In this document: piece by piece, positions 41,139 through 61,398 of the stretch
Layout: each line of letters starts with the position of its first letter
Position numbering within the stretch: the stretch's first letter is position 1
Assembly (NCBI RefSeq): GCF_019703515.2
Contig: NC_059358.1
Location: forward strand, 46,510,594 to 46,574,593
Direction of reading: 5' to 3'
DNA: 64,000 nucleotides
Source of the DNA: Myxocyprinus asiaticus
Taxonomy: Eukaryota; Chordata; Actinopteri; Cypriniformes; Catostomidae
Program-made: the position numbers and the translations under genes
Notes under the pieces: model-generated
Databases searched by the model: none
Seen by the model: only the letters and a program-made list of their open reading frames with translations
Told to the model about the DNA's origin: nothing

Positions 41139-41666
41139 TCACGTATTTTAGGTTGGGAATTATTTTTAAGGCAGCTGAGTCCTTAAACAGTGCAATATAG
41201 TTTTAACTATGCAACTTTTGCTAATTTCTAAAGTTACTTTTGAAAACAGAATGACAGTGTGTGTTATATAAAACATTGTTTTGATCGGTATGTGAACAGC
41301 TGCATACAAAGAAATCACCATCAGTTCTTGAAAATCAGTCTGCTAGCATATCCCATTCTAAAGGAAGCCAGACATGCCAAGCGTTTCATGGAGAGAAAGT
41401 TCTGGAACATCAACCCACTGATTCTGAAAAAAACAAAACAAACACAAACAGCTGTCAGATAAAATACCCACTGCCTTTGATCTCAAAAGCACATCACTTC
41501 TGGGATACACAAGGTATATTGCAGAAAACACCCTTAGAACAACAAAAGAAGTTGCATGTTGAAAGCGACCAGGCAAATAAGCCCATGCAAAACGTGAAAA
41601 AAAGAGGAATAGGCTGTCAAATCCTCAAAAAGTGCATTTCAATAACTGCGTGATGAGAAATATTGA
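41139..41666. other. Spacer, nothing recognised
   Basis: No coding frame or repeat end recognised. It ends at the GCATG target duplication of the outer LTR element. Confidence 0.4.
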
Positions 41667-41671
41667 GCATG

Positions 41672-41744
41672 TGTAATGATGGCAGAGTGGAGAAAGCAGG
41701 ATCCAATTGCAGTTTTAAATAAAAACTCAGAAAAAACACAAAAC
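41672..41744 (-). repeat. Left LTR of outer element, piece 1
   Basis: Matches 57351-57423 (tgtaatgatggcag, ggatccaattgcag, aaaaactcag). Its last 14-15 bases, gaaaaaacacaaaac, recur at 51695-51709 and form the target duplication of the L1-like insertion. Confidence 0.85.
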
Positions 41745-41879
41745 GAGTTGCGTGGTGCCATGCGAGGGTCAGACGTCTGAATGGTGAGCTCTGCGCACTT
41801 TGCTAGTTGTAATACTTTTTATGTCATAAACCGGTGAGATTCGATACACTCTGATTCTTGACTGTTCTAGGAAGGCAAT

Positions 41880-42720
41880 ATGTCAAAGAATTAAAAATTC
41901 TTGGGCTCTGGAGACATTAAAAGACACTTACGTGCTCAAGCTGATACCCCTGACAGGGCCGCAGACCGGGGACTCAGTTTGGATGGTGCGGTGGAAGAGA
42001 TTCAGCATCAACTGTTAATGCTCTGTTAATACATTTCGTCAATGCTGGCGAAGGTCATTGCTGACTTGGAGGATCTTGCTGTAATACGTCGATCGATCAC
42101 TGCCATGGAGACAAAATTCACTGAGATGGTTACAAGAGTGTCAGATGTTGACACACGGATTGATTATCTGGAGTCATCAGAGAGGGAATTAGCTGCTAAT
42201 TTGCTAGTAACCAAGACTTGGAGCGTTTATGGGAAAAGTTGGAAGACTTAGAGAATCGTAGCCTACAAAACAACGTCTGAATTGTTGGAATTCCTGAAGA
42301 CAAAGAAGGTCAAGATATGGTGAAATTTCTGGATGAGCTCTTCCCGAGTCTGCTCAATATAACAGGCCATAAGCTGGAAATCGAGCGAGCTCACAGAGTT
42401 CCGGCTCGGAGATCCGTGGAAGGAGACAGGCCCCGATCTCTTCTGGCCAAATTTCTGAGATCATCAGATAAAGATCTTGTGTTATGCGAGGCAAAGATTA
42501 AAGGAAGGCTTTCTTGGAAGAACCATAACATTTTCTTGTTCCCAGACTTTGCGAATTTGACGAGAGAAACGTTATCGATTCAAGGAATGCAAGAAACTCT
42601 TACATCAGTGGAAGGTCTCTTTTGCACTGATGTTCTTGGCCAAATTGAGAATAGATACTAAGGATGGCCTCAAAATATTTACATGCCCACAGCAAGTGAT
42701 GTCCTTCATAAAGTCAATGG
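41880..42720 (+). pseudogene. L1-B/C ORF1, RNA-binding chaperone
   Basis: ORF1 proteins trimerise by a coiled coil and bind LINE RNA. The likely start at 41880 is followed by a TAA after four codons, and the same TAA occurs in copy D. Then come 42042-42251 (VIADLEDLAVIRRSITAMET, a heptad-rich coiled coil) and 42317-42661 (VKFLDELFPSLLNITGHKLE, IERAHRVPA, LLAKFLRSSDKDLVLCEAK, NIFLFPDFANLTRETLS), an RNA-recognition-like domain. The C-terminal tail is in another frame (LFPAKLR-like, about 42630-42720). Several frame breaks. Confidence 0.78.
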
Positions 42721-43478
42721 AGTGAGTAGGTCATTGTTTGATACTTTCTATGTAGCCAAGTGGGTCTGAATCACTGAACATTCACAGGAAACTGAGCGCA
42801 GCCTCTATTTATTTTGTGCTGGTTCTGCCTAGTGGCTGGAGTTTGTTTTGTAGGATAGCACTCCTTCAGAACAGTTTGTGGATGAATCTATACATTCTTT
42901 GTGCTTACGCCTCGTGTTGTTTGGAGTTTGTTCTGTCGAATATTTCTTGCAAAACATTGGAGTGATTAGGGCATCTGTTGCACTCATGTAACAGTCAAGT
43001 GGGCCTGACTCAATGAACATTCACTTGACTGTCCGAGGAAACTGGGCACCTTTTTTTTCTTTTTGTGCTAGTTCTGCCTAGTGGCTGGGGTTTGTTTTGT
43101 GGAGGAACACACCTTCGGAGCAGTTATGTGGATGAATCTACACCTTCTTTGTGCTTATGCCTCCTATTGGCTGGAGTTCGTTTTATAGATTATTTTCTGT
43201 TGTGTAATTCTGTCTCACAAAATTTGTATAGAAACACCGGAGTTGACCAATCCGATGGCAAAGTTGTCACGGGAGCTCTCGTAGGCATACATGGACTGTT
43301 TGAGTTTAGAGGGATGGACGCAGCTTGGCACTGTCGTGTACGGGGTTAATGCACACGTTTTTCTTTTTTCTGTTTTTTTCGGGGGGGAGTTTTGGGGTTT
43401 GATTGCTGCACTAATGTTGGAATGTGGTCATTATAATTGTATTTTTGACAGACAATCTATTTTTTCTAATATGTCAAA
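42721..43478 (+). other. L1-B/C inter-ORF spacer with repeated motif
   Basis: The word ggctggagtttgttttgt in variant form occurs at about 42833, 42921, 43083 and 43168. It is preceded by ttctgcctagt or tgcttacgcctc/tgcttatgcctc, as in copy A. No reading frame of note. Confidence 0.65.
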
Positions 43479-43893
43479 ATGTCAAACGTTAATACGAGTG
43501 GATTGTCTCTCTCCACATGGAATGTGAATGGGTTGGGGCACCCAATAAAAAGAAGGAAGGTTATTTATTTTCTTAAACATAAGAAATATGATATTGTGTT
43601 TCTTCAAGAAACACATCTTTCCCCGCAGGAAGCTGAAAAATTTGGGAAGATATGGGGTGGACATGTTTTCTTTAGTGCTGGCTCAAGTAAGAGCAGGGGA
43701 GTCATTACATAGATAAGTAAACATCGACAATTCAAATGTCTCAAATAGATTAAAGATAAATTAGGAAGTGTCATTATTGTTTTAGCAGAAATTCAGGGGC
43801 AAAGGTTGATTTTGGCAAATATTTACGTACCTAACGGTGATGATCAGGGATTTTTTAAAGATCTTGAAGGGATGTTGCAAGCCGCTGGCTACC
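43479..43893 (+). pseudogene. L1-B/C ORF2 endonuclease, first half
   Basis: The ATG at 43479 begins MSNVNTSGLSLSTWNVNGLG and includes YDIVFLQETHLSPQEAEKF and GHVFFSAGSSKSRGVIT before a TAG at 43710. The sequence continues in frame with LANIYVPN-like codons to 43890. The APE motifs (WNVNG, QET) are intact in this part. The Gypsy insertion interrupts it at 43894. Confidence 0.8.
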
Positions 43894-44057
43894 TGTAACA
43901 TCCGAGGTTGTTACCCCTCCTACCAACCACCAGAGGGAGCCCTCTTCTGAATACTAACTCTGTACTGTTTCTTCATTGGTTACTTCCTGTCTGAACTATA
44001 TAAATACCATGCTGTTTCCACTGTCACGTTGCGAAGTATTGCCAGCCGCATTCGCAC
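43894..44057 (+). repeat. Gypsy element 3 5' LTR remnant
   Basis: LTR start TGTAACATCC with a tatataaata TATA-like box (about 44000). The LTR passes directly into gag codons, so the LTR 3' part, primer site and leader are deleted. Confidence 0.65.
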
Positions 44058-44910
44058 ACGAGTGCGCGGTATTAAGGGGTTACCAAGACAAGCTGAACAA
44101 ACTACGAGCTGCCAACGAATGTTTGACACAATACATTCACTCACTGCCAGCTCCCCATGCTAACCCAGTAAGCTTTGCTCTCCCTGATAAGGTTGATGGT
44201 TCTGCTGAAAAATGCTGGGGTTTTTTATGACAGTGTAAGGTATTTTTTCTAAATCAGCCTGAATCATTTGATCAAGATGCCAGGAAATGTTTTTTTTATG
44301 TCACGGCTTACTGGCAAAGCTCTCGATCTGGCCGCCGCTTTTTGGGATAAAGATACTCAAATCCAGGTTTCATTTGATTACTTCGTTCAACAAATCCATG
44401 AAATCTTCGAAAATCCAGTGGGTGGTCAAGATATCTCTGTTCAGCTACTTCATCTACGCCAGGGTCATCGATCAGCAGCAGATTATGCAGTTCTGTTCAG
44501 GACACTAGCGGCTCAGAGTGGGTGGAATGATGTCGCTCTGAAGACTGTTTTCCACGAGGGGCTTAACCTGAAACTCAGGATGGAACTAACCTGCAAGGGT
44601 GAAGGTATGAATCTTTCTGAATATATCACTATGGCCTTCAAGATTGATAACCTGCTTCAGAATGCTTCACGGCCTCAGTTATGTTTCACCCCGGATTCTA
44701 CAGGCTCAGACATCCACTGTATCACCTGAACCCATGCATGTTGCTCACACTCGTGTTTCCATGGAGGAATGCCAACGACGATGCAATGAAAACCTTTGCT
44801 TTTGCTGTGGTTCACCAAGTCATCTCATTGCTGCATGCCCACATAAGAAATCAAGGTTCCCTGAGTCAAGGCAGCACATGAGTACTATGAACATTAAATC
44901 ACCCATCTAA
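44058..44910 (+). pseudogene. Gypsy element 3 gag
   Basis: Gag pieces in transcription order: [20 protein letters not shown] (coiled coil-like), [20 protein letters not shown], a TGA at about 44228, then after a slip in a T-run near 44290 a 153-codon frame (44268-44729). That frame has SRLTGKALDLAAAFWD, FDYFVQQIHEIFENPVGG, LHLRQGHRSAADYAVLFRTL and GLNLKLRMELTCK, the capsid of the Gypsy Retrotrans_gag family. A zinc knuckle CFCCGSPSHLIAAC (C-x2-C-x4-H-x4-C) lies in another frame at about 44800. Confidence 0.82.
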
Positions 44911-46355
44911 CATAATTTTCTCTTGCCTGCAGAGATCTCCATTGGTGATCATGTAAGAGGTGTAACAGCATTAGTGGATTCTGGGGCTGCTGTTAGTCTC
45001 ATTAATCAGGGGATTGTACAAGAACTCAACATACCCACCATTGAATGCTTTCCTAAGCTTAACATCACCACTGTGGATAATGCACCAATTGGTACTGGCA
45101 TAACCCAACAGACTGTTCCTATAACCATCAAGATTGGGCTTTTTCATGTTGAAAATATTTCACTATATGTCATCAACTCACCCAATCACGCTCTTATCCT
45201 GGGTCATCCCTGGCTGGCCATCCATAATCCATCGATATCCTGGAACCAAGGTGAGCTCACACATTGGTCAAGTTTCTGTCATGAACATTGTCTTCATGTT
45301 GCTGTTTCCAGGCCTTGCTTTATCACCAGTGTAGAGAGCCCTAAATCACAGAAGGAGACCATGATTCCCAAGGAGTATGCAGAGTTCAGTGAAGTGTTTA
45401 GCAAGATTAAAGCTACACAACTTCCTCCTCATTGTCCATGGGATTGTGCCATTGAACTTCTGTCTAATACAGCTCCACAGAGAAGCAAGGCCTATGCATT
45501 TTCACGCCCCGAGATCCTCGTCATGGTGAGTTACATTGAGGAAGCCCTTGCCTCCGGTTACAGCAATCCCTCCACCTCCCCAGCTGCTGCAGGATTCTTT
45601 TTGGTGGAGAAGAAGGATGGAGGTCTTCGTCCCTGTATCGACTATCGAGGCCTGAACTCTGTCACCATAAAATATCGTTACCCATTGCCACTTATCCCCT
45701 CCACCCTTGAACAACTCCATGAAGCCAAGATCTAAACCAAACTGGATCTAAGGAGTGCTTATAACCTCATCAGGATCCGAGAAGGGGATGAGTGGAAGAC
45801 TGCATTCATCACCACCAGGGGTACTATGAATACTTGGTCATGCCGTATGGACTTGCCAACATCCCCTCGATTTTTCAGTCTTTCATCAATGAGATTTTCA
45901 GAGACTTACTGAATCATTGTGTGGTGGCTTACATTGACGACATCCTCATTTACTCACAAAACAACATATCCAGCAGGTCAAGACAGTCTTGTCACGTCTC
46001 CAGGAACATCAGCTATTCGTTAAGGCAGAGAAATGTGACTTCCATACCTCTCATACCACCTTCCTGGGTTACAACATCAGCCATCAAGGTGTAGAGATGG
46101 ATGTCTCAAAGGTAACAGCTGTCACCGAATGGCCTCGACCTACTAAACTCAAGGAAATACAGCAGTTCCTGGGCTTTGCCAACTTCTATTGCCGTTTCAT
46201 TAGGAACTACAATACCATTGCAGCACCACTCACGTCATTGCTCAAGGGAAAGCCAAGCAAGTTGCCATGGAACGATGCTGCATACCAAGCCTTCATCTCC
46301 CTCAAGTCAAGCTTCACAACTGCTCCAATACTGTAACATCCTGATCCCAATCTTC
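44911..46355 (+). pseudogene. Gypsy element 3 protease and reverse transcriptase
   Basis: 44923-45735 (270 codons) carries the protease active site [13 protein letters not shown] near residue 20 and ILGHPWL, then the RT start [22 protein letters not shown] at 45733 falls just before motif A ([14 protein letters not shown]). Motif B is in another frame ([20 protein letters not shown]), followed by motif [13 protein letters not shown] (YIDD intact). 45989-46336 has [31 protein letters not shown] and [19 protein letters not shown], the thumb and connection. A solo LTR interrupts it at 46356. Confidence 0.86.
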
Positions 46356-48164
46356 TGTAGGGCTTTACTGGTTGTTTAGATCAGTGTTACTATCAGAAAT
46401 AATAATTATTTCTGTAGTTATTAATCAATATTTAAATTAATTAATTGGATCTAACTCATTAAAACCTCACATGGGACTCCAGTAAATGTAGTGTGCTACG
46501 TTTAGGAGCAAGTTTGGTTATTAGCAATAATTAATAATTATCAAAGATAATTATTAATTATTAAAATCAATAGAACATTGATGAGAATCAATGTTAGCTT
46601 TTTTTTAATCCTTTAAAATTAACACTTATCAATTGTTAACATCGATGAAACATTAAAATTAACACTAGCTTATTGATCATTCTAATTCAATCAAAGATAA
46701 TTATCAATTATCAAAAATCAATAGAATATTAATAAGGATTAACATTGACGGGGCACCACCCTGAAATCAGGGACTAATAACCGAATATTAAAACAGTCTC
46801 AATATTAGATTGTTTTCTTAGGAAAATCGACATCCGAAGAATATCGATTTTCAAATAAAAAAACAATGAATGAAGGTTTGAATCCGAGCACTGACATCCC
46901 GTCAGCACGACACAGGCGTATGCAAAACAAACCAAAACACTTCTCTTTGTAATATAAACAAAGTTTATTTATGCAGTAATATCAATTAATAATTAATACA
47001 ATGCAGTCAATAAACTTCCGACTTACAACTACAAACTAAACAGTGATATGATTAGATATGGAAATAAAAATAATCCTATAACACATAAGGTGTGTGTGTG
47101 ACAGTGTGTGTGTGTGTGTCAGTGTGGTTAGTGAGAGAGAGAGAGATGATTAAGTGACAGCCCGAAAGCTGATTTCGCGATAGCTGGAGATAAAGCAGCC
47201 GTGTTCATCACTCAGAGACGCGGTTTTACGAGCGGGGCTCGTAAAAGTCCCTTGTTATTTGACTCTTTAATGGATGAACTCAGTTGCTGTCTCACCCGCG
47301 ATGGCGAAAATGCACAACAGTCCAATTTGGTTGGACCACAATACAGCAAAACAAATTCATGATAATTAATACCCTGAGTATTAATAATGAGCGGACATGC
47401 GGTCCGTAAACTGTACAAGCAAAAACCTTGAAACACAAGAATAACACACTATAATATTCTATCTCTGCCCAGACGTAACCTCTTACTTGAATCGCATGAG
47501 GACACAGGTAGAATGTGTTTTCCTCCGTCCTTTAACCTTGACCCGGTTCCTTGAGGCTCGTGTGATGATGAGAGCCGTTTCCTCGCGCTGTCGGCGGCCG
47601 GTACGGCTGTTGGTTCTCGGCGGGCTGGCGGAGAACTCAGAAATGTCGACTTGATTGAAGATGGAAGAGAAATCTTTAATCTCTTCACTTCTGTAGGCCA
47701 ACGGATGAAGATGCGAATTGCTCGGCGGTCTCCTTCGGATCCGTTAGAGTGTTCGGTTGAACACAGAGTAATCTCAACTCGTCCAGCGAGATGGAGATTG
47801 TATGGCTACAGTTTCAAGTCGGACATTACTTCCTTAAGCCACGAGGTTGCACCGGAGAGCAGCAAAAAGCTACGTCCGTATTCGGTGAACGAAGTCGCAG
47901 GAAGCAACTTTGGAAGCATTATCAGAATTATTTGAAGTCCTGATGATGTCATGTTTGAGGGACGTTCTGTTGTGTGCCTCATCCAATAGGACTTGAGAGC
48001 TCGATCCTTTAGAGGGCAAGGCTTCATGGATCTGTAGTCTGTTTTGGACTCCCTTTGTTTGATTTTTATCAGTAAGATTTACGACTTAGAAGGAGGGGGC
48101 TTGAGGAATGTTTTTGACTGTTAGGCCTGCCTTTGTCTTCTATCTGAATACATGAGGCCCAACA
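46356..48164. mobile_element. Solo LTR, 1809 bp, with CTTC target duplication
   Basis: Starts TGTAGGGCTTTACTGG and ends GAGGCCCAACA, with CTTC directly before (46352-46355) and after (48165-48168). Removing it joins the Gypsy frame correctly (cctgatcccaatcttc + ccttcgtcg). It contains AATTAATTAT-rich palindromic stretches, TG and GA short repeats (about 47090-47150) and a GC-richer right half (47500-47950). The frame 47651-47935 has no recognised domain. The great length suggests an ERV- or Gypsy-type LTR, but I cannot name the family. Confidence 0.8.
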
Positions 48165-49227
48165 CTTCCCTTCGTCGTCGAGGTAGACGCTTCAGATTGT
48201 GGGATTGGAGCAGTCCTGTCACAACATCACGGAACACCAGGCAAGCATTACACTTGTGTCTTCTTCTCCAGAAAGTTGAACTCAGCTGAACGTAACTATG
48301 ATGTGGGGAATAAGGAGTTACTTGCCATGAAAGTGGCACTTGAGGAATGGCGTCACTGGTTAGAAGGGGCAGTCCACCCATTCCAATTTATCACGACCAC
48401 AAGAATCTTGAATATATCAAGGCAGCCAAGAGATTGAATCCATGCCAAGCCCAATGGTCATTGTTTTTCACCAGGTTCAATTTCATAGTCACTTACCGCC
48501 CTGGCAGCAAGAACATCAAGGCAGATGCTCTTTCACGCAGACACGATCCACCTCACCTCCAACCTCACCCTGGGTCCATCCTGCCACCATCTGTCATCAT
48601 AGCACCGATTAGCTGGGACTTAATGGAAGAAACAACGAGCACAACAGCATGAACCATCACCACCTAACTGCCCCCCAACCAAGCACTACATACAAGCTCT
48701 ACGTCAGAGGATGATCCAATGGGTCCACACTTCCTTGAGCACAGGACACCCTGGCATCCAAAGAACAATCACTCTGGTACGTAATTCCTTCTGGTGGCCA
48801 TCTGTGATTCATGATGTGACTAATTATGTGAAGTCTTGCCAGGTGTGTGCCCAATCCAAGACCCCCAGAGAACTGCCCACGGGGTTGCTTCAGCCACTGC
48901 CCATACCTCAAAGACCATGGTCTCACCTGTCCATCGACTTCGTCACAGACCTGCCAAACTCCCATGGATACACTACCATTCTGGTAATCATTTACCAAAT
49001 CATGTAGACTTGTCCCTCTCAAGGGTTTACCCACTGCCATGGAAACTGCTAATGCTTTATTCCACCAAGTCTTTAGGGTCTATGGATTACCAGAGGACTT
49101 CGTGTCCGATCGAGGTCCACAGTTCACGTCACGAGTTTGGCAGGCATTCTGCAAACAGTTGGACATTAATGTGAGTCTCACCTCTGGTTATCACCCTCAG
49201 GCCAATGGACAGGTAGAACATCTGAAC
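48165..49227 (+). pseudogene. Gypsy element 3 RNase H and integrase
   Basis: RNase H begins in the frame restored after the solo LTR ([13 protein letters not shown], about 48182) and continues at 48347-48652 with [20 protein letters not shown] and [17 protein letters not shown]. Integrase at 48711-49007 includes [20 protein letters not shown] (zinc-domain H-H), [14 protein letters not shown], and the catalytic-core [15 protein letters not shown] with the first Asp. 49039-49227 carries [11 protein letters not shown] (second Asp) and [14 protein letters not shown] (Glu). Several stops and frameshifts are present, but the three catalytic acidic residues are all retained. A DIRS sequence cuts it at 49228. 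Confidence 0.85.
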
Positions 49228-50187
49228 CTCTTTGATAAAAGGCCAATGAAAATTGGCGAGTGGTATTTGCATGCTACTCCCCCAGACATACAGGTATAAA
49301 AGGATCTGGTATGCAACCACTCATTCAGATTTTCTCTTCGGAGCCGAACAGTCATGCTCACTGAGCTGAATTCCCACGACTGTTCATTCACCTCTGCTGG
49401 ATCTGATGGCGCATTTCAGCGGCTTCTCCCTCCTCTGCACTGGTGCACTGCAGAGAACACCCCTGGGTGCTTCGGCAGAAATAAAAGAGTATATTTCTCT
49501 AAAAGAGCAGAACACATGGAACGTCTTTTTAAAGACACGTCTTTTTAAAGATGCCTTTCATTTGTGTGTTATTCCTGGTTGCGCTCATTATCTCTCGCCT
49601 TCGTAAGAAGGCAAGCCATCCCAGAGGCTCCCCGCCTTGGTCCTTCTACCCACAGGTATGAGGCCAGCACGGCTAGCACTGGGGGCAATTTGGGGACCCT
49701 AATGGGACCGCCTCCGCCGGTTATCCCCCCGTGGACCTCCCATTCCCCAGCACGCTCGTCTGCCCTGATCGGGCTTCCAGATGAGTCCGCCGGCTCATCT
49801 CACAGCGAGTTCGACCTCTTATTCGGAGCCCGCGAAAGTGATGAGCTCTTGAGCACAGCATCGGAGAGCAGGCTCGTCCGGTCGGACGCGGAAGCCTCAG
49901 CTGGGCTCCTCCCTTCAGGTGTGGTCGCCCAGTCACAACGCTGAATTACCCGCTGAAATGACCGGACCTTGTCTCGGCTCCTCAGCATAAAACCTGAATG
50001 AGTGGTTGCATACCAGCTCCTTTTATACCCGTATGTCTGGGGGAGTGGCATGCAAATACCACTCGCCAATTTTCATTGGCCTTTTATCAAAGACCAGAGG
50101 TGTCTCTCCCCTAGTGTCAATACATCGACAGAACATCTCGTTCCCTCCATCAGGGAATGGAGGTTATGCAAGTAACCATGACGTTTT
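49228..50187 (+). mobile_element. DIRS deletion derivative with inverted ends
   Basis: The left terminus (tttgataaaaggccaatg, ggcgagtggtatttgcatgc, 49230-49270) is repeated inverted on the right (gcatgcaaataccactcgcc, attggccttttatcaaag, about 50048-50092), the inverted-terminal arrangement of DIRS elements. Between them is the start of DIRS ORF1 (FVRRQAIPEAPRLGPSTHRY, about 49603-49660, then IGLPDESAGSSHSEFDLL), then a deletion removing RT, RNase H and recombinase. The outermost left end is missing, and the Gypsy integrase end plus part of the 3' LTR are lost at the same place. Confidence 0.82.
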
Positions 50188-50332
50188 GTTTGCCTTGTTG
50201 GACTGTCTTTTTGGTTTATTGGATTATACCGCCTGCATAACTGTTTGCCTGCCGATTTGGATTTTTTGCTTGTGTTCAAATAAACTTCCAGCACATGGAT
50301 CCTAACACTGTCTCCATGGCTAGTTCATTACA
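50188..50332 (+). repeat. Gypsy element 3 3' LTR remnant
   Basis: The last 145 bp of the LTR, with caaataaacttccagcac (poly(A) signal, about 50277) and the TTCATTACA terminus. Confidence 0.7.
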
Positions 50333-50880
50333 TTACCCTCATGATATAATATTGGGAGGAGACTTTAATCTTTTGATGGACTCATTCCTTGATCATAGTG
50401 AAGCAAAAGTGTGTAAACCCCCTAGAGCAACAGTGATGCTTCAAAGAATGTGTAAAAAATCTTGGTCTTACAGATATTTGGATACTTTTGAACCCATCTG
50501 GTAGAGACGATACATTTTTTTCATCAGTCCATAAGATTTATTCTAGAATAGATTTTTTTTTATATCTAAGTCCCTCATTTCATCTGTTGTGGATTGTTCA
50601 ATTGGAAACATTTAAGTCTCAGATCACGCCCTGGTGAGTTTAGAGGTTTTGCCACATACAGAGAAAAAAAAATCATATAGTTGGTGCTTTAATGTATCCC
50701 TAATGTATCTATAATGTATTGGGGATAGTCAATTAAAAAGTTGGATCTTAGCCGGAGTTATGGTTGGCAGACAAATTATTCTTAGGGGATGGAAGACGGC
50801 TGGGGCACCCTCGTTTCAGGAGTGGTGTGGGGAGATGGGTGGGGTGGCAGCATTTGAGGAGGTGATTTTTAGAAGAGTGG
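50333..50880 (+). pseudogene. L1-B/C ORF2 second half, RT deleted
   Basis: Resumes the endonuclease (HDIILGGDFNLLMDS-like, about 50340-50385, then EAKVCKPPRAT). It continues to about 50700, where endonuclease-end sequence (ggtgctttaatgtatccc) jumps to the ORF2 C-terminal region (gttggcagacaaattattct, ggatggaag). The whole reverse transcriptase is missing. This copy cannot have moved itself after the deletion. Confidence 0.75.
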
Positions 50881-51302
50881 TGTGGCATGATGAACGAGTC
50901 ACAGACAATTATTCTTAAGTGTACAGTCCCACAAAGGGGGTGTTTTGTTGTGACAATAGATGGAAAAGGAACTTAATGGTGCGTGGTGTCTTCGGTGCAA
51001 GGGTGTGGTGAGCGTGTTGGGGTGTCTGTGATCGTGAGTACTGTGTTTATTGTAGCTTCCGTGGGATGCGTGCGGTGATCGGCGCTCACTCATTGCTGGA
51101 GTCTGGAATTGAGAGAGAGAGAGAAGAGGATTAGTGACATGCCTCGGAGTTAATGTTCACCGTCTTCCTCTTCCTCCAGCATTAAAATCCCCTCCAGCTG
51201 ATTGTTCACAGGTGACGCCGATCAGCATCTGCATTCCACGGTTGATTGGTGAATGAGCTCCAATTCCAGGGTGACGCTGAAACGCATGGGATACTCGCCA
51301 CA
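50881..51302 (-). mobile_element. Solo LTR, 422 bp, nested in L1-B/C
   Basis: Termini TGTGGCATGATG and CTCGCCACA give TG...CA and the short inverted pair TGTGGC/GCCACA. On the minus strand it has an acaataaacacag poly(A)-like signal (about 51045). Flanks AGTGG and GCTGG agree in 3 of 5 bases, a possibly decayed duplication of the L1 word ggctgg. The L1 C-terminal sequence is interrupted exactly here when compared with copies A and D. Confidence 0.65.
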
Positions 51303-51305
51303 GCT

Positions 51306-51468
51306 GGGAAAATGGGATTTGTTTTATAGGAAGTGGGGTGGATATTTGGCTTTTTCGGAGGGTTCTCGGGGAGGCAGAGTGGAAAGGGAAAATGGGATTT
51401 GTTTTATAGGAAGTGGGGTGGATATTTGGCTTTTTCGGAGGGTTCTCGGGGAGGCAGAGTGGAAAGGG
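51306..51468 (+). repeat. Perfect 80-bp tandem duplication in L1-B/C
   Basis: The stretch beginning aatgggatttgttttatagg at 51311 is repeated exactly from 51391, including ggcagagtggaaaggga at each end. It encodes part of the ORF2 C-terminus. Copies A and D have a single unit. Confidence 0.93.
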
Positions 51469-51694
51469 ATTTTTAGTTTGATGTGTATGTGCATTCTTGT
51501 TTTTTGAAAGTATATATTTTATGTTTTTTATTTTTATGTTCTAATTGTAAGCGACCACTGTAGTGCGTGTTTGTGTCGGGTGGGGGGATGTTCGGGGGGA
51601 GGGATGTAATGTATATAATTGATTCTGTATTTTATGTTGTGTTTGTCTGTCTTGTGGATGGAATCAATAAAAACTGTTAATAACAACAAAAAAA

Positions 51695-51731
51695 GAAAAA
51701 ACACAAAACACTAAAGACAATGCAAAACTAG
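51695..51731 (-). repeat. Left LTR of outer element, piece 2
   Basis: Corresponds to the LTR bases between the two L1 insertion sites. Its end, agacaatgcaaaactag (51715-51731), is repeated at 56231-56247 as the target duplication of L1 copy D. Confidence 0.85.
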
Positions 51732-51871
51732 GATGAGTCCACGGACGCCATGTGAGAAGCAGACGTGTGAGACACGAGCTCTGCGAACTTTGCTAGTTTT
51801 TAAATTATTTTCATGTTATAATCCGGTGAGATTTGATACACCCATTTACATACTTGCTCTTTGAGGTAAAC

Positions 51872-52565
51872 ATGGCAAAGAATTAAAAATCCTCAGACTC
51901 TGGAGACATTAAAAGACACTTACGTGTTCAAGCTGAGGCCTCTGATGGGCCTGCGGACCGGGGACTCGATTTGGATGGCACGTCGGTAGATGAAATTCAG
52001 CATCAACTGTCCAACATCTCGGTAATGCTGACAAAGGTTGTTGCTGACTTGGAGGATCTCGCTGTAATACATCGATCGATTACGGCGACAGAAACAAAAT
52101 TTTCAGAGAGTGACAGAAGTTGAAAGACGTATCTATTATCTTGAGTCATCGGAAAGGGAATTATCCGCTAATCCGCCCGTGTCCAAAACCGAAAATATGA
52201 ACCGAAGGAATAACATATGAATTGTTGAAATTCCTGAGCATGAAGAGGGCAGAGATATGGTGAAATTCCTGGACGAGCTCTTCCCGAGTCTGCTCGACAT
52301 AACAGGTCATAAACTGGAAATCGAGCGAGCTCGCAGAGTCGCGGCTTGCAGAACTGCTGAGGGAGACAGGCCCCAATCGATTCTGGCCAAATTTCTGAAA
52401 TCATCCGATAAAGATCTCGTGTTGCGCCAGGCGAGGAGCAAAAGAAAGCTTTCTTGGAGGAATCACAACATTTTCTTGTTCCCGGACTTTGCGAATTCGA
52501 CGAGAGAAATGCGATCGGTTCAAGGAATGTAAGAAACTCTTACACCAACAGAAGATCACTTTTGC
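51872..52565 (+). pseudogene. L1-D ORF1
   Basis: ATG at 51872, followed by the shared TAA after four codons. A coiled-coil stretch follows, and 52257-52532 has VKFLDELFPSLLDITGHKLE, IERARRVAACR, LAKFLKSSDKDLVLRQAR and NHNIFLFPDFANSTREM. It is truncated near 52560 where it joins ORF2. The role would be RNA binding and chaperoning. Confidence 0.75.
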
Positions 52566-55500
52566 ACTAATATTTATGCACCTAACATTGATGATCAGGG
52601 CTTTTTTATAGATCTTGAAGGGATGCGGCAAGCCGCTGGCACCCCTCATGATATAATATTGGGAGGAGACTTTAATCTTTTGATGGACTCAGTTCTTGAT
52701 CATAGTGAAGCAAAAGTGTGTAAGCTCCCTAGAGCAACAGTGACGCTTCACAGGATGTGTAAAAATCTTGGTCTTGCAGATATTTGGAGACTTTTGATCC
52801 CATCTGGTAGAGACTATAATTCTTTTTTCATCAGTCCATAAGATTTATTCTAGAATAGATTTTATTTAATTTTTTTTATATCTAAGTCCCTCATTTCATC
52901 TGTTGTGGATCGTTCAATTGGAAACATTTAAGTCTCAGATCACGTCCTGGTGAGTTTGGAGATGTTGCCACATACGGAGAAAAATAAATCATATAGTTGG
53001 TGCTTTAATGTATCCCTTTTGCAAAATTCTGATTTCCAACAAATGTTAAAGACCAAAATCAATGTTTATATGGAGACCAACTGGTCCTCAGTATCTTCTG
53101 TGGGCGTGGCTTGGGAGGCACTTAAGGCGATTCTTAGGGGTCGGATCATACAGTATGCCTCATTCACCAAAAAATCCAAAGCACGAGAACTTATAGAGTT
53201 GGAAGGGAATATTAAAAGTGCAGAGGCAGAGCTGAAGTGCAGAATGTCATCTGATGGCCTCAGAGAATTGACTTGATTGAAATACAGATATAATGCTATT
53301 TTGTCACGGAAAGTGGAGTTTTGGTTATTCAGGGCAAGACAGTCGGGGGACAAGGCAGGGAAGCTTTTGGCTAGATATATAAAGCAGAGAGAGTCTTTTT
53401 CTACCATTCCCTCAGTGAAATCTGCTGGTGGTGAAATTTTTACCTCGGCCACTGATATTAATAATGCTTTTAAAGAGTTCTATCTTGGTGTTTATAGTTC
53501 TATGTCATCGTCTACTGATGAAGATATTAGAAACTTTGTGGAACCATTAGAACTTCCTAAACTGATGACTGAGTAAAAACATTATCTTGATTCTGAGATA
53601 ACCTTGGAGGAACTTGATGAGGTAATTAAGGCCTTACCTACAGGCAAAGCTCCGGGGCCAGATGGTTTTGCTGCTGAATTTTTTAGACCTTATGCTACAG
53701 AACTGGATCCACATTTGTTAGAAGTTTATATGGAATCATTAAAGAATGGAAAGCTTCCTCCAACTATGACACAAGTCCAGATCAGTCTGATTCTTAAAAA
53801 AGACAAAGATCCAAGTATGTGTAAAAGTTACCGTCCAATTTCCCTGATCCAGCTAGATTTGAGAAAATTTTGGCTAATCATGTAAGTAAGGTTATGACAT
53901 CTCTTATACATATAGATCAGGTGGGGTTTATCCGGAGCCGCAGCTCTTCTGATAACATTAGGCGTTTCATTAATATCATGTGGTCAGTAGCGAATGATCA
54001 GTCTCCGGAACGCTGCCATTTCATTTGACGCTGAAAAGGCATTTGATATGGTAGAATGGGATTATTTTTTTAAGATTTTAGAAATGTATGGGTTCGGGAG
54101 TACATTCATTGGTTGGATTAAGTTACTTTATAGACACCCTGTAGCAGCGGTACAAACAAACTGATCAATTTCAGATTATTTTACTCTGGATAGGGGCACT
54201 CGTCAGGGTTGCCCTCGTTCCCCATTATTGTTCTGTCTTGTCCTGGAACCATTAGCAGCCGCGATAAGAAAGGAGGATGATTTTCCAGGGGTGGTGGCAG
54301 GAGGTGTGGCGCATAAGCTTCTGCTTTACGCAGATGATATTTTATTATTCGTCTACGACCCCACTAGATCTATGCCTTGCCTCCACAGAATTATTAATTC
54401 CTTTTCCAAGTTCTCTGGATACAAAGTTAACTTGTCTAAATCCGAAGCTTTAGCTCTGACTGCGTACTGCCCAGTAACTGCCTTTCAGCCGGGTGCCTTT
54501 CAGTGGCCCAAACAGGGCATTAAGTATTTGGGTATTTTATTCCCAGCAAATTTTTCTGATTTAGTTAGAGTTAATTTTGACCCTTTAATTAAAAAGTTTT
54601 CGAGCGATGTGGACAGATGGGCTTCATTACATTTATCGATGATTGGGAAGATTAATGTTATTAAAAATTAACTGTATTCCAAAATTCAACTACCTGTTAC
54701 AGTCACTCCCTATAGATGTCCCCCTCTCTTATTTTAAGCAATTTGATAGAATTGTGAAGTCCTTCATTTGGAATGGTAAATGTCCCAGTCTACATTCCAA
54801 CAAATTACATAGGCCGATTGACAAAGGTGGGTTAGGCTTGCCTAAGAGTTTGTTTTATTATTATGTGTTCAGTCTCAGGCATTTGGCTCATTGGTCGCTT
54901 CCACCTGAGAGAGCCCCTCCCTGGTTTTCTATTGAACAGGAAGTCCTTGCCCCTATTTCACCATTGCAAAGTCTTTCTATTAAACTAACCGGAGAAGTTA
55001 AGTCACACCCCGTTATTTCACATTTGCACATGATTTGGACAAGAATGGCCAGAGTATTTAATTCGGACATTTGTTTAAATGTTGCCTCAAGCATATGGCT
55101 GAACCCAAAATTATATATCAATAAGTCCCCTTTCTGTTGGTCAGAGTGGATTGTGAGAGGGGTTGTTACACTCGGCGACCTGTATGAGAGTGGAGTGTTG
55201 AGATCTTTTGAGAATTTGGGTCATCATTTTGGGATTCCCAGATCTCAGTTTTATAGGTAATTACAGCTGTGCCACATGCTCTGTACTATTTTTGGGAGTA
55301 GTGCACACACCCCTAAAGCGGCAGATGCTCTGGGAGAGGTGATTGCTGCTTTTGGAAAAGGTCATGAGGCATCAGTGTATTACTCCCTGCTGGTTAGGAA
55401 TCTGGGGGATGGAGCTTTAGCTTCTATCAAGAGATTATGGGAAAAAGATTTGAATTTGGTATTGGAGGAAGAAGTGTGGCTAGGATTCTAAAAAATGTCA

Positions 55501-55990
55501 AGTCTGCATCTAGAGATGCAAGGGTTCGCCTTATGCAATTTAAGATTTTACATAGATTTTACTGGACCCCCTCTAGATTATATAGGCTTGGTCTTAAAGA
55601 CACACCCAACTGCTGGCGTTGTCAGTCAGAAATTGGAGACACAACTCATGCCTTTTGGGGGTGTGTTAAGATTCAAGATTTTTGGATGAAGGTGCAGAGC
55701 TATTTGTTTGACGTTTTGGGCAATCAAGTTTTGCTTTGCCCCAGACTTTGTATTTTGGGTGACAAAGCGGTCATATATTTGGGGGACAAATTTATAAAAA
55801 TTGGGTTTTAACAAGCATTATGATTGGCAGACAAGTAATTTTAAGGGGTTGGAAGTATGACGGAGCGCCATCATTTCCAGAGTGGTGTACAGAGATTGGG
55901 AGGGTGGCAGCGTTTGAAGAAGGGGTATCTAGAGGATTGGGTAATTTGGACTCGTTTATGGGAAAGTGGGGCAAATATTTGACATTTTTG
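52566..55990 (+). pseudogene. L1-D ORF2: partial endonuclease, RT, CCHC
   Basis: Enters within the endonuclease (IYAPNIDDQGFFIDL, then DIILGGDFNLLMDSVLD, 52623-52841). Frameshifts separate 52950-53576 (linker), 53604-53885 (LPTGKAPGPDGFAAEFF and SYRPISLIQL, early RT), motif A (FDAEKAFDMVEW, about 54025), GTRQGCPRSPLLF (about 54195-54230) and 54228-54671 with LLLYADDILLFV (YADD intact). 54643-55260 is the thumb (PIDKGGLGLPKSLFYYY). 55437-55811 holds a knuckle CWRCQSEIGDTTHAFWGC (C-x2-C-x8-H-x4-C, complete). At least six frame breaks. Confidence 0.87.
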
Positions 55991-56230
55991 GAGGGCTCTC
56001 GGGGAGGGACAGTGGAGAGAGATGTAGAGGTTATGTGTGTGATTTATTTTATTTTATTTGTTTTTGTGTGTCTATAATTATGTGGGACCACTGGGATGTT
56101 CTTATGGGTAGGGTTGGGGGTTGGGGATGGGGGGTAGTAATAGAGGGGGTTAAGTATTGATTCTGTTTGTATATGTTCTTGCTTTTATGTGTTAATATAG
56201 GAATCAATAAAAAAATGTTAATGTAAAAAA

Positions 56231-56565
56231 AGACAATGCAAAACTAGAACACAAAGCACAATATAAACTGAATTAACAGAACAAGAACTGACAATGAACA
56301 GAGGAAAGCACAGGCATTAAATACACAGAGAACTAATGATGAAACGAGGGACACCTGACACTAATAAACACAAGGACCAATGAACAAGGAGCAATGAACA
56401 AAGACCATGAAAAAGAACTACAAAACCCATAAACAAATGAAAGAATCAATAAAGTTTTTATGTGTTAAGGAGCTTCTGGAGCTGCTCGTTAGATGGGGGG
56501 GCTCTGTAAGGATTACCTGGGCAACCACCAGGTGTCGCTATGTATGTTTATTGTTCATTTCGTGT
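56231..56565 (-). repeat. Left LTR of outer element, piece 3, with inverted tail
   Basis: 56231-56444 matches the right LTR (aacacaaagcac, gaattaacagaacaag, gagggacacctgacacta, catgaaaaagaactac). The last LTR segment (about 70 bp) is then present in inverted orientation at 56504-56570 (tgtaaggattacctgg, caccaggtgtcgc), preceded by a G-rich agatgggggggctc. Turning 56445-56565 over would restore a complete LTR end followed by the polypurine tract. The inversion edges carry tgaaaga and its inverse tctttcg. Confidence 0.7.
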
Positions 56566-57332
56566 CTTTCGTTGACCTCCATGAGTGCTGGTAGGGGAAC
56601 GACCTCTGTGGCCATGAGCGCTGGCAGCAGCAGGGGAATGACCTCCGTGGCTGTGAGCACTGGCAGTGACTGGGAGCATGAGCACTTCTCCTCCTCCTCT
56701 TCCAGACAGCCGGGAGCACTGCTGTGGGAACTGCTTCCATGGCCTCTGGAACTGGCTCTGGGATGGACGAGGCTTCAGGCTCTGGCTCTGGGACGGACGA
56801 GGCTTCAGGTGCTGGCTCTGGGACGGACAAATTTCAGGCCCTGGCTCTGGGACGGACGAGGCTTCAGGTGCTGGCTCTGGGACGGACAAAGTTTCAGGCC
56901 CTGGCTCTGGGATGGACAAGGCTTCAGGCACTGGTTCTGGGACGGACGAGACCGTGGCAGGCGTGGGCACTGGCTCATTGACCTTGGCAGGCGTGGTTAG
57001 CTGGACCACAGAGTTGGGGACCACTGGGACCTCCGTTATGGGAATCTCTGAGGAGGATGCCCTGAGAGCCACATGGGGACTAGAGCAGTACCCCACTGTG
57101 TAGGGGGAGGAACTTAGCAGTAGGGCATAATCTATGTACTGTTCCAAAGTATAGTTAAAGCTGCCTCCTGGCATCCATGACTTGATGGGCTCATTGAGCC
57201 CAAATCGAAATAGGTTCTTTAACACAAACTCTCCCCAGTTTATACAATCTGCGAGGGCACAAAAAAGCTCAGTGATCTCTTAAATTGTGTCACCCTCCTC
57301 TTCAGAGAAATCAGTTCCACTGTTGGATCCAT
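56548..57332 (-). pseudogene. Gag-like ORF with decapeptide repeats
   Basis: On the minus strand, the ATG at 57332 gives MDPTVELISLKRRVTQFKRS. After a frame slip in a T-run near 57265, the frame from 57225 has FRFGLNEPIKSWMPGGSF and LEQYIDYALLLSSSPYTVG, a compact helical Gag-like segment. A Pro/Glu-rich part encoded by 30-bp repeats (SVPEPAPEAS-type units) follows. One unit has 29 bases and shifts the frame, giving PSQSQ- and LKPR-type residues downstream. It then ends in a Ser/His/Arg-rich tail. No protease, RT or integrase. I recognise it only as a protein of a small LTR element in fish genomes. Confidence 0.6.
56761..56939 (-). repeat. 30-bp coding tandem repeat, six units
   Basis: Units of the form gacggacgaggcttcaggtg + ctggctctgg at 56761, 56791, 56821 (29 bp), 56850, 56880 and 56910. 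On the minus strand they encode PEPxPExxSV-type decapeptides. The 29-bp unit is the frame-breaking one. Confidence 0.9.
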
Positions 57333-57350
57333 TTCTTTGGTCAGTTCTTC

Positions 57351-57685
57351 TGTAATGATGGCAGACTGGAGAAGGAAGGATCCAATTGCAGTTTTAATAA
57401 AAACTCAGAAAACACACAAAACACTGGAGACAATGCAAAACTAGAACACAAAGCACATTACAGACTGAATTAACAGAACACTAACCGACAATGAACAGAG
57501 GGAAAAACAGGGATTAAATACACAAAACTAATGATGAAATGAGGGACACCTGACACTAATGAACACAAGGACCAATGAACAAAGACCATGAAAAAGAACT
57601 ACAAAATCAATAAACAATCGAAAGACGTGAAATAAACAATACGCATACACAGTGAGCCCTGGTGGTCAACCGGGTAATTCTTACA
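57351..57685 (-). repeat. Right LTR of outer element, intact
   Basis: 335 bp with TG...CA termini (TGTAATGATGG / GGTAATTCTTACA on the plus strand), followed by the target duplication GCATG. As the element is read on the minus strand, this is its 5' LTR. No standard tRNA primer site is obvious after its end, which reads gaagaactgacc on the minus strand. Confidence 0.85.
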
Positions 57686-57690
57686 GCATG

Positions 57691-60229
57691 TCTATGTTAA
57701 GCTTTTTTTTTTTTTCCACAGCCAGGATATAATATGTTGCTCTCTTTAAGATGAATAGCTGATCTTAAAGGCCACTTAAGTCTGCAAGTAGCCTGAAGCC
57801 CCTCAATGGCCACATTTACATGCAATCAAATAATCTGTTTAGAATCCAACTGATAGCTCTTACATGACTTACTTGCATTTTTGAAAAGCCTTCATGTAAA
57901 CACAAAAATGATCAGACTGAGCTGGATCCAAATGAAATTTCCATCTCATTGAAGGGGGTGGTGTAGACCTAAAATAAACTGATTAAAATAAAAATATTGG
58001 CCATGTAAACGCTTGAATCCGACTACTTTCTCAATCGTATTCAAAATAACTTGCGCTCATGCGCAGAGATGTGGTGTGTATGTATATACATGATACTCTT
58101 TGTGCGAACCTACAAAGTAATGACAAAAAGCATTATTAAGGGTATGAGGGCTCACACTGAATATTCTGCAGGGCACATATGTTCTTTCATGACATCATAT
58201 AAAGCAAAAATGAACGCTGTGTCATTCTTAATAGGGACTTTAAGCAGCAGGTGCAGTTACGGCGTTCTGTGTTCCATTGCGTGTACGTGACTTCACTTCC
58301 TGTCGTCGAAACTATAATTTCTAAAATATTTCTTCTTTGCCATAGTGACAGTCGATCGTATGTGACAGGTTAGGAGAGTAAATGTTAGAATATGTTTTAC
58401 AAGATATCTGATTTTATAAGAGATCCGTTCCACCGTCATTATTGCTTAGTGATTTTTGCATAGCGTCCCGTCCACAGATGTTGCTTAAATTCCTATTATT
58501 TTGTTTTAATTCCACATCTGTAAACTCCTTTAAGGAAAACTCTCACCCACTGTCTTTACTTCGTACTTGCATACAGAGATGCCTACGGTTAGATTGGAGG
58601 AGGAATGGACATGAGGCATATACATGGTAAAGTCAGACAGGGTATTAGATGCTGCTTCTAATTCTTCATTTGACGAGTTGAGTGAGCAACATAAGAAGAA
58701 AGCTTTTCTGGCATATGTTTTAGATATCTCAACAAAGCAAAAACACCAATTACGGACTTTGGTGCCATTCTCACTTTCTCAGCCTTTCTCCGCTTCTTCA
58801 GAACACAACGACTGATGCTCTTCGCATGTGCAGAAGTTGGATGGAATTTGTGAATAGTTTAAATGGAATTTGGGGGAACATTTTTTTACGGTTAACATGC
58901 AGATGCTTCTATTCTTGAAAAAGAACCTTCCTCTAAAATTTACAAAACAATCCTTATTGAAAGACAGCCTTTACATATTGGTCATTATTATATTATTATT
59001 ATTATCTGTTTTTTTTTTCTTTCTGATTTTTGATTATTTTGTGACAGCTAAAAGTGACTTTTTATTTCATTCCTTTTTGAGGATATCTTTTGAGTAACAG
59101 TTGCTGAAAAAAATAAACACTCCTCTATCTCCTCAAATCATCAGTCTCACAGTATTGTAATTGAAAACTGTAAACATAAAAAATGTTAAAGAAAAAACAA
59201 AGAAAAAAGTAAAACAAAATACAGATATCAGCATCAGTATCGGCAACTATTGAAAAGGAAGTACCTGTACTTTTATTCAGTCTCCAAAAAAATGGTATCG
59301 GAACATTTACATTTAACTTTATTTAACCTGTTTTATATATAAAGGTCAGGACAATGGATTTGATTTTTCATAACCAATCAGAGTGGTAGGACAACGCATG
59401 ACTTTTGAGTGTTATACATTTTGAGGACTGAATTCTTTTGATTCCTTCAAAAAGGAAAACAAAACAAATTCCTAACAAGTACCGATTGTGATATACATGT
59501 CAAATTTTTTAAATAAATGCATTTCAGTAAAGCCGGCAAACATTTGTCTAATTCCTTTGGTCTCCATTTCCTCACACACACATAAATGCCTCTTAAACAA
59601 ACTCAACCTAATTGAACTACTGGTCCAGTGCGGTACAGCACAAGAAATTACTATAATAATCTGGATGCTAACTACAGGTATTTGCTACACTAGGGGTAGG
59701 GTTAGGGTTGCTGTGGGACACAGTTTATGAATATTGCATGTGAATGTCACAACACTTTCCACAGAACAAGGATTGCCATCTAGACACAACTGTCTTGATG
59801 TGCCAAGTTTGAAAATGCACATGCCTTTGGCAAGCTAAAGCTTAGGGCAAGATTATATGGGTTTGGAATTGAAAGGGTGAGTAATGACGTCAGAATTTTT
59901 ATTTTGTGTGATTTATTCCTGTAATGTGTTTCTTGGAAATGTAACTGTGGACTGAAGAAATTACTGCATTAAAAAATTCCCATGAATCAGAAAGTCAATT
60001 GTGCACTTTCAGCCATTGTGGAATAAATACATATGCCAAACCATTTGGTTAATATGCTTCTCATACTTTAATGTGAATGTAGTCAGATTTTATACAGGTA
60101 CATGTGTGCATGTTACAGGTAAAACTATATCTGTCATGGATAAGTTGAATTAATAGAACAATTTCTTTCCTTGACCTTGTACGCTGTAAAATATGAAGAA
60201 AAAAAATTAACGGTAAAAGACTGTAAAAA
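57691..60229. other. Non-coding spacer, one possible old MITE
   Basis: Between about 57806 and 58025 the phrases cacatttacatgcaatcaaa and ggccatgtaaacgcttgaat recall an old foldback MITE, but the arms are too diverged to define. Frames at 58051-59097 and 59488-59730 have no recognised domain and are judged to be chance. At 59240-59290 words such as agtatcggcaac and tggtatcgg resemble the interior of hAT-type elements like the one at 62518. Confidence 0.4.
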
Positions 60230-61398
60230 TGCTACCATCTCAGGGGTGCTTCGAAGCCTTTTGTGGGTTCTTGGCGGCCGCGAGACGGGTGGCATCTGCT
60301 GCCTGTGGTGGGCTCCACGCCGGGCCGCAGGGGCGGGCTGTGGCAGAGCCGGTGCAGTCACCGCAGGGGGACGCCCTTGGCGACGAGCAGACGGGGTGCG
60401 GGATCTTGAGCTGTGCTGGGGCAGGATGTGCCGGATAACCTCCATCTGCTGCTCACCCAGAGAGCGAGGTCGGTCGCTGAGCACAGCTGCTGCATCAATC
60501 CCGGGTCGGAACTACCCTCGTGCAGTACTTTAGCGCCTTGGCAGACTTGCAGGAGAGCCATGGCGTGTAGGGCAGAGGCGGATAAGAGGTCAAACTCGCC
60601 ATGAGACGAGCCAGCGGACTCATCCGGAAGCCCGATCGGGGCAGACGAGTGTGCTGGGGAATGGGAGGTCCGTGGGGAGATACTCGGTGGAGGTGGTCCC
60701 ATTGGGGTCCCCAAATCGGCCCCAGTGCTAGCCACGCTGGCCTCATACCCGTGGGTAGAAGGACCGAGGCGGGGAGCCTCTGGGGTGGCTTGCTTTCTTA
60801 CGAAGGTAAGCCACGACTGCATCGTTGCCATGGACATGTTCTCGCAATGTGTACATGACCCATCCACGAACGCTGTCTCCACGTGAGCAGTGCCCAGACA
60901 TGAAAGACAGTGATCGTGACCGTCAGAAGGCGAGAGATAACGAGCGCAACCAGGAATAACACACAAAAGAAAGGCATCTTTAAAAAGACGCGTCTTTAAA
61001 AAGACGTTCCGTGTGTCCCGCTCTTTTAGAGATATATACTCTTTTAGAGAAATATACTCTTTTATTTCTGCCGAAGCGCCCGGGGGCATTCTCTGCAGTG
61101 CACCAGTGCAGAGGAGGGAGAAGCTGCTGAAATGTGCCGTCAGATCCAGCAGAGGTGAATGAACAGTCGTGGGAATTCAGCTCAGTGAGCATGACCATGC
61201 TGCTCCGAAGAGAAAATCTGAATGAGTGGTTGCATACCAGCTCCTTTTATACCCATATGTTCGGGGTAGTGGCATGCAAATACCACTCGCCAATTTTCAT
61301 TGGCCTTTTATCAAAGACTAGAGGTGTCTCAGGCTCCCAAGAGTGACCCCTGGTGTCACTACATCGACACAACGTCGAGTGAGTGACAGATAGGGAAC
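60230..61398 (-). mobile_element. DIRS element 5' terminal fragment
   Basis: The outer end lies at about 61398 (inverse of gttccctatctgtcactcac). It is followed inward by the terminal region with atttgcatgccactac, tataaaaggagctggtatgc and gaatgagtggttgc inverses, the same terminus as the DIRS derivative at 49228. ORF1 then runs toward lower coordinates and breaks off at about 60230, where unrelated A-rich sequence begins. RT and recombinase are absent. Confidence 0.83.
60245..61089 (-). pseudogene. DIRS ORF1 (Gag-like) N-terminal part
   Basis: A 243-codon frame (61089-60358) begins near MPPGASAEIKEYISLKE, a segment in which EYISLKE is duplicated, then CVIPGCARYLSPSDGHDHCL and CLGTAHVETAFVDGSCTHCE. 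Its cysteine/histidine pattern (CARY, HDHCLSCLG, CTHCE) suggests a zinc-binding domain. A Ser/Pro-rich region (PPPSISPRTSHSPAHSSA, IGLPDESAGSSHGEFDLL) follows. A frameshift near 60420 moves the coding to another frame (QGRPPAVTAPALPQPAPAAR). This is the nucleic-acid-binding first ORF of cyprinid DIRS elements as I remember them; no catalytic domain is included. Confidence 0.75.

What the first reader, a model, noticed from the sequence alone, without database searches (positions are those of the whole stretch)
41672..57685. A multi-level transposon nest resolved entirely by target duplications
Six or seven insertions can be ordered from the sequence alone: outer LTR element (GCATG), L1-B/C (15-bp duplication), L1-D (17-bp), Gypsy 3 in L1-B/C (TACC), a 1.8-kb solo LTR in Gypsy 3 (CTTC), a DIRS derivative in Gypsy 3, and a 422-bp LTR in L1-B/C. 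Removing 41745-51709 (L1-B/C plus one duplication copy) and 51732-56247 (L1-D plus one copy) rejoins the left LTR. Such a clean stratigraphy gives relative dates for several families in one fish lineage.
Basis: partly seen in the sequence, partly recalled or inferred. Interest (0 to 1): 0.8.

Follow-up and report, generated by a model that had tools for sequence, protein, structure and literature searches.

The report
Nested transposons in fish-like DNA
Several jumping genes have landed inside one another at one place, so part of the order in which they arrived can be read from the DNA; it is a tidy but ordinary example of a common pattern, and it orders the events less completely than first claimed.

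Summary
An outer minus-strand LTR element (target copy GCATG) carries two separate L1 insertions in its left LTR. One of them (L1-B/C) holds a Ty3/Gypsy copy and a 422-bp LTR; the Gypsy copy holds a 1.8-kb solo LTR and a DIRS-like piece. The three left-LTR pieces fit end to end on the right LTR.

Corrections. (1) The left LTR is not fully rejoined: its innermost 60 bp is missing in place and lies nearby, inverted, probably a ~120-bp inversion between 6-bp inverted repeats. (2) The DIRS-like step shows no target duplication; its left end is cut, and host Gypsy sequence is missing at its site. (3) Gypsy 3 has no overlapping LTR pair, and both L1s have large internal deletions. (4) Nesting gives only a partial order: 48 linear orders of the seven elements remain possible. 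(5) Only the outer element has an LTR pair for dating (K2P 0.089); L1-L1 divergence largely reflects source lineages and does not date insertions.

Empty sites could not be tested: no fish assembly could be searched. This is a new instance of a well-known kind.

The parts
41667..41671 (.). left target-site copy GCATG of the outer LTR element
41672..41744 (-). outer element, left LTR piece 1 (matches right LTR 57351-57422)
41729..41744 (.). L1-B/C target copy, left, 16 bp
41745..43893 (+). L1-B/C, 5' part (ORF1 and endonuclease fragments); its last 4-5 bp are the Gypsy 3 target copy
43894..50332 (+). Gypsy 3 (Ty3/Gypsy copy; gag, protease, RT, RNase H and integrase fragments; partial LTR at each end, no overlapping LTR pair)
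46352..46355 (.). solo-LTR target copy CTTC, left
46356..48164 (.). 1809-bp solo LTR, TG...CA ends (strand of the element not determined)
48165..48168 (.). solo-LTR target copy CTTC, right
49229..50137 (+). DIRS-like piece as far as homology shows it: inverted terminal arms 49229-49347 / 49974-50093; outer part of the arm present on the right only; right end not fixed; no target copy found
   Evidence: second copy at 60579-61376
50333..50337 (.). Gypsy 3 target copy, right (TTACC; left copy CTACC 43889-43893)
50338..51693 (+). L1-B/C, 3' part; lacks sequence equivalent to D 53018-55795
50881..51302 (.). 422-bp LTR with TGTGGC...GCCACA ends; flanks AGTGG/GCTGG overlap by 5 bp on L1-A
51306..51469 (+). 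perfect 80-bp tandem duplication inside L1-B/C
51694..51709 (.). L1-B/C target copy, right, 16 bp
51710..51731 (-). outer element, left LTR piece 2 (22 bp between the two L1s)
51713..51731 (.). L1-D target copy, left, 19 bp (AAA ambiguous with tail)
51732..56228 (+). L1-D, 5' start similar to that of L1-B/C, internal deletion equivalent to B 42635-43817
56229..56247 (.). L1-D target copy, right
56248..56444 (-). outer element, left LTR piece 3
56445..56564 (+). inverted block: G-rich tract (56491-56504) plus the LTR start from 56505, between inverted 6-bp repeats 56439-56444 and 56565-56570
56571..57350 (-). outer element internal region with ~30-bp tandem repeats (56752-56950); no Pfam match for its longest minus-strand ORF
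57351..57685 (-). outer element, right LTR (335 bp), the comparison for the left LTR
57686..57690 (.). right target-site copy GCATG

Best explanation
This is an ordinary nest of retroelements built by successive insertion and then damaged. An LTR element inserted first. Two L1 copies later landed 22 bp apart in its A-rich left LTR by target-primed reverse transcription. L1-B/C then received a Gypsy copy and a separate LTR element, now a single 422-bp LTR. The Gypsy copy received an element now reduced to a 1.8-kb solo LTR. It also acquired a DIRS-like piece, by an event that left no target copy we can see and is accompanied by missing Gypsy sequence. A ~120-bp inversion in the left LTR, internal deletions in both L1s and a perfect 80-bp tandem duplication were added. 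Shown: boundaries, target copies, collinearity and nesting. Inferred: the mechanisms (target-primed reverse transcription, integrase, LTR-LTR recombination, inversion) from general knowledge of the families, and that each insertion happened at this locus.
For: Left LTR pieces abut on the right LTR. Target copies of 16 and 19 bp for the L1s and of 4-5 bp for the LTR elements. The flanks of Gypsy 3 meet at one place on L1-A and on L1-D; those of the 422-bp LTR overlap by 5 bp on L1-A and 3 bp on L1-D. Pfam finds gag, protease, RT, RNase H and integrase pieces in Gypsy 3 and L1 ORF1, endonuclease and RT pieces in the L1s, two of them (Gypsy RT, L1 ORF1) below the curated cut-off. The LTR has 11 AAAA starts in 335 bp against 3 in the 906-bp stretch 56445-57350, which would account for two L1s landing close together. 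The 6-bp inverted repeat GAAAGA/TCTTTC sits where left-LTR homology stops.
Against: The inverted LTR stretch differs from the right LTR at 14 of 67 sites, against 23 of 274 for the in-place pieces (Fisher p = 0.007), more than a simple inversion of the same LTR predicts. Short target copies are weak singly: 970 and 279 of 200,000 random pairs reach 4 and 5 bp. The Gypsy and 422-bp LTR copies are imperfect in their 5-bp form. The DIRS-like step has no target copy. No empty site or read data were available.
Confidence: 0.92

Rival explanations
1. Some nested parts arrived together: Gypsy 3 already carried the DIRS-like piece (or the solo-LTR element) in its source copy and inserted into L1-B/C as a composite.
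For: Target copies at the ends of Gypsy 3 say only that the whole unit inserted, not when its contents arrived. The DIRS-like piece has no target copy and lies where Gypsy sequence is missing.
Against: Gypsy 3 lacks an overlapping LTR pair, so this form could hardly copy itself without later loss. The self-comparison of the window lists no second copy of a Gypsy 3/DIRS junction (matches of 80 bp or more at E up to 1e-10).
Confidence: 0.12
2. The inverted block 56445-56564 is a fragment of a different, related LTR element rather than a local inversion.
For: Higher divergence from the right LTR: 14 of 67 sites against 23 of 274 (p = 0.007).
Against: The block's LTR homology (to 57619) overlaps the point where the left LTR's homology stops (57625) by 7 bp, with a 6-bp inverted repeat at both edges; an unrelated fragment would not be expected to match the break.
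Confidence: 0.2
3. The nest is an assembly artefact.
For: A perfect 80-bp tandem duplication lies inside (51306-51469); no reads could be examined.
Against: Target copies and collinear flanks at insertion junctions are not expected from a misjoin.
Confidence: 0.03

Closest known systems
Nested transposable-element clusters ('TE clusters'), as in PMC2517846 (passages seen) and PMC2672092 (passages seen)
   Same: Older elements interrupted by younger ones, with relative order read from nesting; LTR pairs dated by divergence.
   Different: Only one of the elements here has a usable LTR pair, and three sister pairs cannot be ordered.
Ty3/Gypsy LTR retrotransposons (Gypsy 3)
   Same: Pfam Retrotrans_gag, aspartyl protease, RVT_1 (below its curated cut-off), RT RNase H and Integrase_H2C2 pieces; TG...CA ends, 4-5 bp target copy.
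   Different: Partial LTRs that do not overlap, interrupted, later part of integrase not found.
L1 non-LTR retrotransposons
   Same: L1 ORF1 domain (just below its curated cut-off), endonuclease and RT; 16-19 bp target copies, A-rich target.
   Different: Both copies start at a similar 5' position but have internal deletions.
DIRS elements
   Same: Inverted terminal arms and no target copy found.

Membership tests
Nested TE cluster | Host element resumes on the far side of the insert | tested here: met
   Outer LTR and L1-B/C. For Gypsy 3 around the solo LTR, both sides match successive parts of another Gypsy copy in the window (16346-17068, then from 17169).
Nested TE cluster | Target copies at every insertion | tested here: not met
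   Found at six of seven steps, two of them imperfect in 5-bp form (Gypsy 3 4 of 5, 422-bp LTR 3 of 5); none found for the DIRS-like piece.
Ty3/Gypsy (Gypsy 3) | gag, protease, RT-RNase H, integrase in that order | tested here: met
   as separate open pieces; RVT_1 (E = 0.00029, 21.1 bits) is below its cut-off of 29.6
Ty3/Gypsy (Gypsy 3) | two matching LTRs | tested here: not met
   the best local match of the end pieces is 16 bases with 3 mismatches
L1 (B/C and D) | ORF1 and endonuclease-RT domains, target copies over ~10 bp | tested here: met
   ORF1 in B (21.0 bits against a cut-off of 22.4) and endonuclease in B, RT in D; B/C lacks the RT region, and other pieces were not scanned
DIRS | tyrosine recombinase and DIRS RT | tested here: inconclusive
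   an ORF of the second copy (60358-61176) had no Pfam match; the nested piece itself was not scanned; identity rests on termini and recall
Solo LTR (46356-48164) | one LTR with TG...CA ends and target copies, no internal region | tested here: met
   for ends and target copies; no full-length relative was available, so absence of an internal region is not shown by comparison
Outer LTR element | two LTRs in the same direction with target copies | tested here: met
   the inner 60 bp of the left LTR is inverted

The most novel reading that the evidence does not exclude
Gypsy 3 with the DIRS-like piece in place of its integrase end and LTR start is a composite, non-autonomous element family that moved as one unit, so the DIRS-like step is older than the Gypsy insertion and the stratigraphy is partly inherited from a source copy.
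Probability: 0.1. Interest if true: 0.4.

Novelty: new member of a known kind. Interest (0 to 1): 0.14.

Why it matters
As a single locus it matters little: it is a worked example of how nesting orders insertions and of where that logic stops. It shows that target copies at the outer ends of an element do not order what lies inside it, that sister insertions stay unordered, and that LINE-to-LINE divergence does not date insertions.

Tried and rejected
L1-B/C as a chimera: rejected. Its endonuclease region is 91-94% and its 3' end 72-75% identical to the other copies, but L1-A and L1-D show the same gradient against each other (91%, then 72-75%).

Dating the L1 insertions by copy-to-copy divergence: rejected. 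A-D differences by codon position are 79/820, 69/817 and 154/818 over six open stretches of L1-D (two of the six overlap by 29 bp in different frames and those bases are counted twice). The third-position excess marks divergence of selected source lineages.

L1-D's internal gap as a spliced intron: rejected by reading the junction by eye (no GT...AG ends); no script tested this.

An autointegration origin for the inverted block: rejected by reading, since the LTR start in the block still sits next to a G-rich tract rather than next to a target copy.

Relatives elsewhere: two DNA patterns in viral contigs and one in genome contigs found nothing. A protein search with the outer element's longest minus-strand ORF gave 861 candidates, none at E up to 0.001. 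Rfam found nothing at gathering score. Genome contigs holds bacteria and archaea and viral contigs viruses, so these failures say little about a fish.

A control mended: some random windows could run into the left LTR (best random score 118 for the third piece); one search repeated it with windows wholly outside 41600-57800 (best 29).
Full report
What was checked. The finding says that six or seven insertions at 41672-57685 can be ordered by target duplications and that removing two L1 inserts rejoins the left LTR of an outer element. I tested the boundaries by aligning pieces separately, without building a joined product.

Outer element. The right LTR is 57351-57685 (335 bp); the left LTR starts at 41672; GCATG lies on both outer sides. 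The left pieces 41672-41744, 51710-51731 and 56248-56444 map to right-LTR positions 57351-57422, 57423-57444 and 57445-57625, so they abut without gap or overlap once one copy of each L1 target duplication is set aside. In one search the local match of the 22-bp piece begins at 57428; its first 5 bases include the two mismatches counted. Each piece outscored 2000 of 2000 shuffles and 2000 of 2000 random windows wholly outside the nest; the 22-bp piece does so narrowly (34 against 32 and 27), and its placement rests mainly on its neighbours. Together the pieces differ at 23 of 274 aligned sites (K2P 0.089).

A correction. The last 60 bp of the right LTR (57626-57685) has no in-place counterpart on the left. 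A copy lies inverted at 56505-56571, directly after a G-rich tract at 56491-56504 that looks like the polypurine tract next to an LTR start (a motif recalled from knowledge of the families). Left-LTR homology stops at 56444 in GAAAGA, and the inverted copy contains TCTTTC at 56565-56570. The simplest reading is a local inversion of ~120 bp between these 6-bp inverted repeats. Against it, the inverted stretch differs at 14 of 67 sites, against 23 of 274 elsewhere (Fisher p = 0.007), so capture from a related element is kept as a rival.

The two L1s. L1-B/C has identical 16-bp target copies and L1-D identical 19-bp copies, of which AAA is ambiguous with the tail. None of 200,000 random pairs shared 12 bp or more. 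Both copies begin at a similar 5' position and both are internally deleted: D lacks the equivalent of B 42635-43817, and B/C lacks the equivalent of D 53018-55795. They lie 22 bp apart in the host LTR; that LTR has 11 AAAA starts in 335 bp against 3 in the 906-bp stretch 56445-57350, so proximity needs no special mechanism. Neither lies inside the other, so their order is unknown.

Inside L1-B/C. Gypsy 3 (43894-50332) carries gag, protease, RT, RNase H and integrase pieces (the RT match, E = 0.00029, is below its curated cut-off). Its L1 flanks meet at the same place on L1-A (22794) and on L1-D (52643). TACC is exact; if the LTR ends in CA the target is 5 bp, CTACC/TTACC. The two end pieces share no LTR match beyond 16 bases with 3 mismatches, so Gypsy 3 cannot be dated by LTRs. 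The 422-bp LTR (50881-51302) has 6-bp inverted ends; its flanks overlap by 5 bp on L1-A at 26116-26120 and by 3 bp in the local alignments to L1-D, although the two copies now match at 3 of 5 bases. A perfect 80-bp tandem duplication follows it (51306-51469).

Inside Gypsy 3. The solo LTR is 46356-48164 (1809 bp) with CTTC on both sides; Gypsy RT lies before it and RNase H after it, and both sides match successive parts of another Gypsy copy in the window (16346-17068, then from 17169). The DIRS-like piece has inverted arms 49229-49347 / 49974-50093 and a second copy at 60579-61376. Its left arm is cut relative to the right. The zones around its ends (49209-49236 and 50138-50200) share no 5-mer, although 347 of up to 500 pairs of zones of that size placed at random do (pairs closer than 200 bp were skipped and count as misses), so there is no sign of a target copy of 5 bp or more; the right end itself is not fixed. 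The match of the Gypsy integrase to the other Gypsy copy stops at 49206, and 49229-50332 gave no match to that copy, whose open frame runs on beyond that point. Whether this happened before or after Gypsy 3 entered L1-B/C is open.

How much order there is. The nest is a tree: outer; then L1-B/C and L1-D; then Gypsy 3 and the 422-bp LTR inside B/C; then the solo LTR and DIRS-like piece inside Gypsy 3. By hand count, 7!/(7x5x3) = 48 linear orders fit it (15 without the DIRS-like piece). It does not give one sequence of events, and one locus does not date families. Differences between L1-A and L1-D are 79/820, 69/817 and 154/818 at codon positions 1, 2 and 3 over six open stretches, so they largely reflect replicating source lineages under selection.

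Context and literature. Of ten long open stretches outside the nest that I scanned (of 30 listed), six carry reverse transcriptase, RNase H or transposase domains, one carries only ALKBH8_N, and three have no match. Nested clusters and their use for relative age are established: passages of PMC2517846 and PMC2672092 say so, the latter describing software that resolves insertion order and dates LTR pairs. A passage of PMC2517846 also says that most interrupted Alus are hit in the A-rich linker because of the TT|AAAAA target, the same logic as the paired L1 sites here. Passages of PMC4746887 report diverse Gypsy, ERV and DIRS groups in teleosts. Other papers were seen only in search listings with the start of their abstracts. 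No search was made for this locus itself in print, so no claim is made about that.

Limits. The own assembly could not be searched, and no fish genome collection was on hand. Empty sites, read support, species and family names remain untested.

Noticed in passing
16271-19093: Another Gypsy copy whose integrase-like reading passes, in one open frame, into sequence that resembles (by recall) a DIRS reverse transcriptase near 18721; perhaps a second Gypsy/DIRS contact in the same window. Pfam found nothing in ORF 18251-19093.
   Followed up: partly
21314-26268: A third L1 copy (L1-A) with a 513-codon open stretch holding RVT_1 and a long TG/TA repeat in its 3' region.
   Followed up: partly
42715-43195: Diverged direct repeats of ~240 bp between ORF1 and the endonuclease region of L1-B, with matches to several places in L1-A.
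   Followed up: no
51306-51469: Perfect 80-bp tandem duplication beside the 422-bp LTR: very recent, or an assembly fault.
   Followed up: no
56752-56950: About 30-bp tandem repeats inside the outer element, read on the minus strand as a Pro-Glu-rich repeat; no relative at E up to 0.001 in the protein search.
   Followed up: partly
1992-2840: 283-codon open stretch with Tc1/Sleeping Beauty-type transposase domains.
   Followed up: no
8651-9595 and 33586-34188: Open stretches with the Pfam domain named ALKBH8_N, in the first case directly after a reverse transcriptase domain.
   Followed up: no
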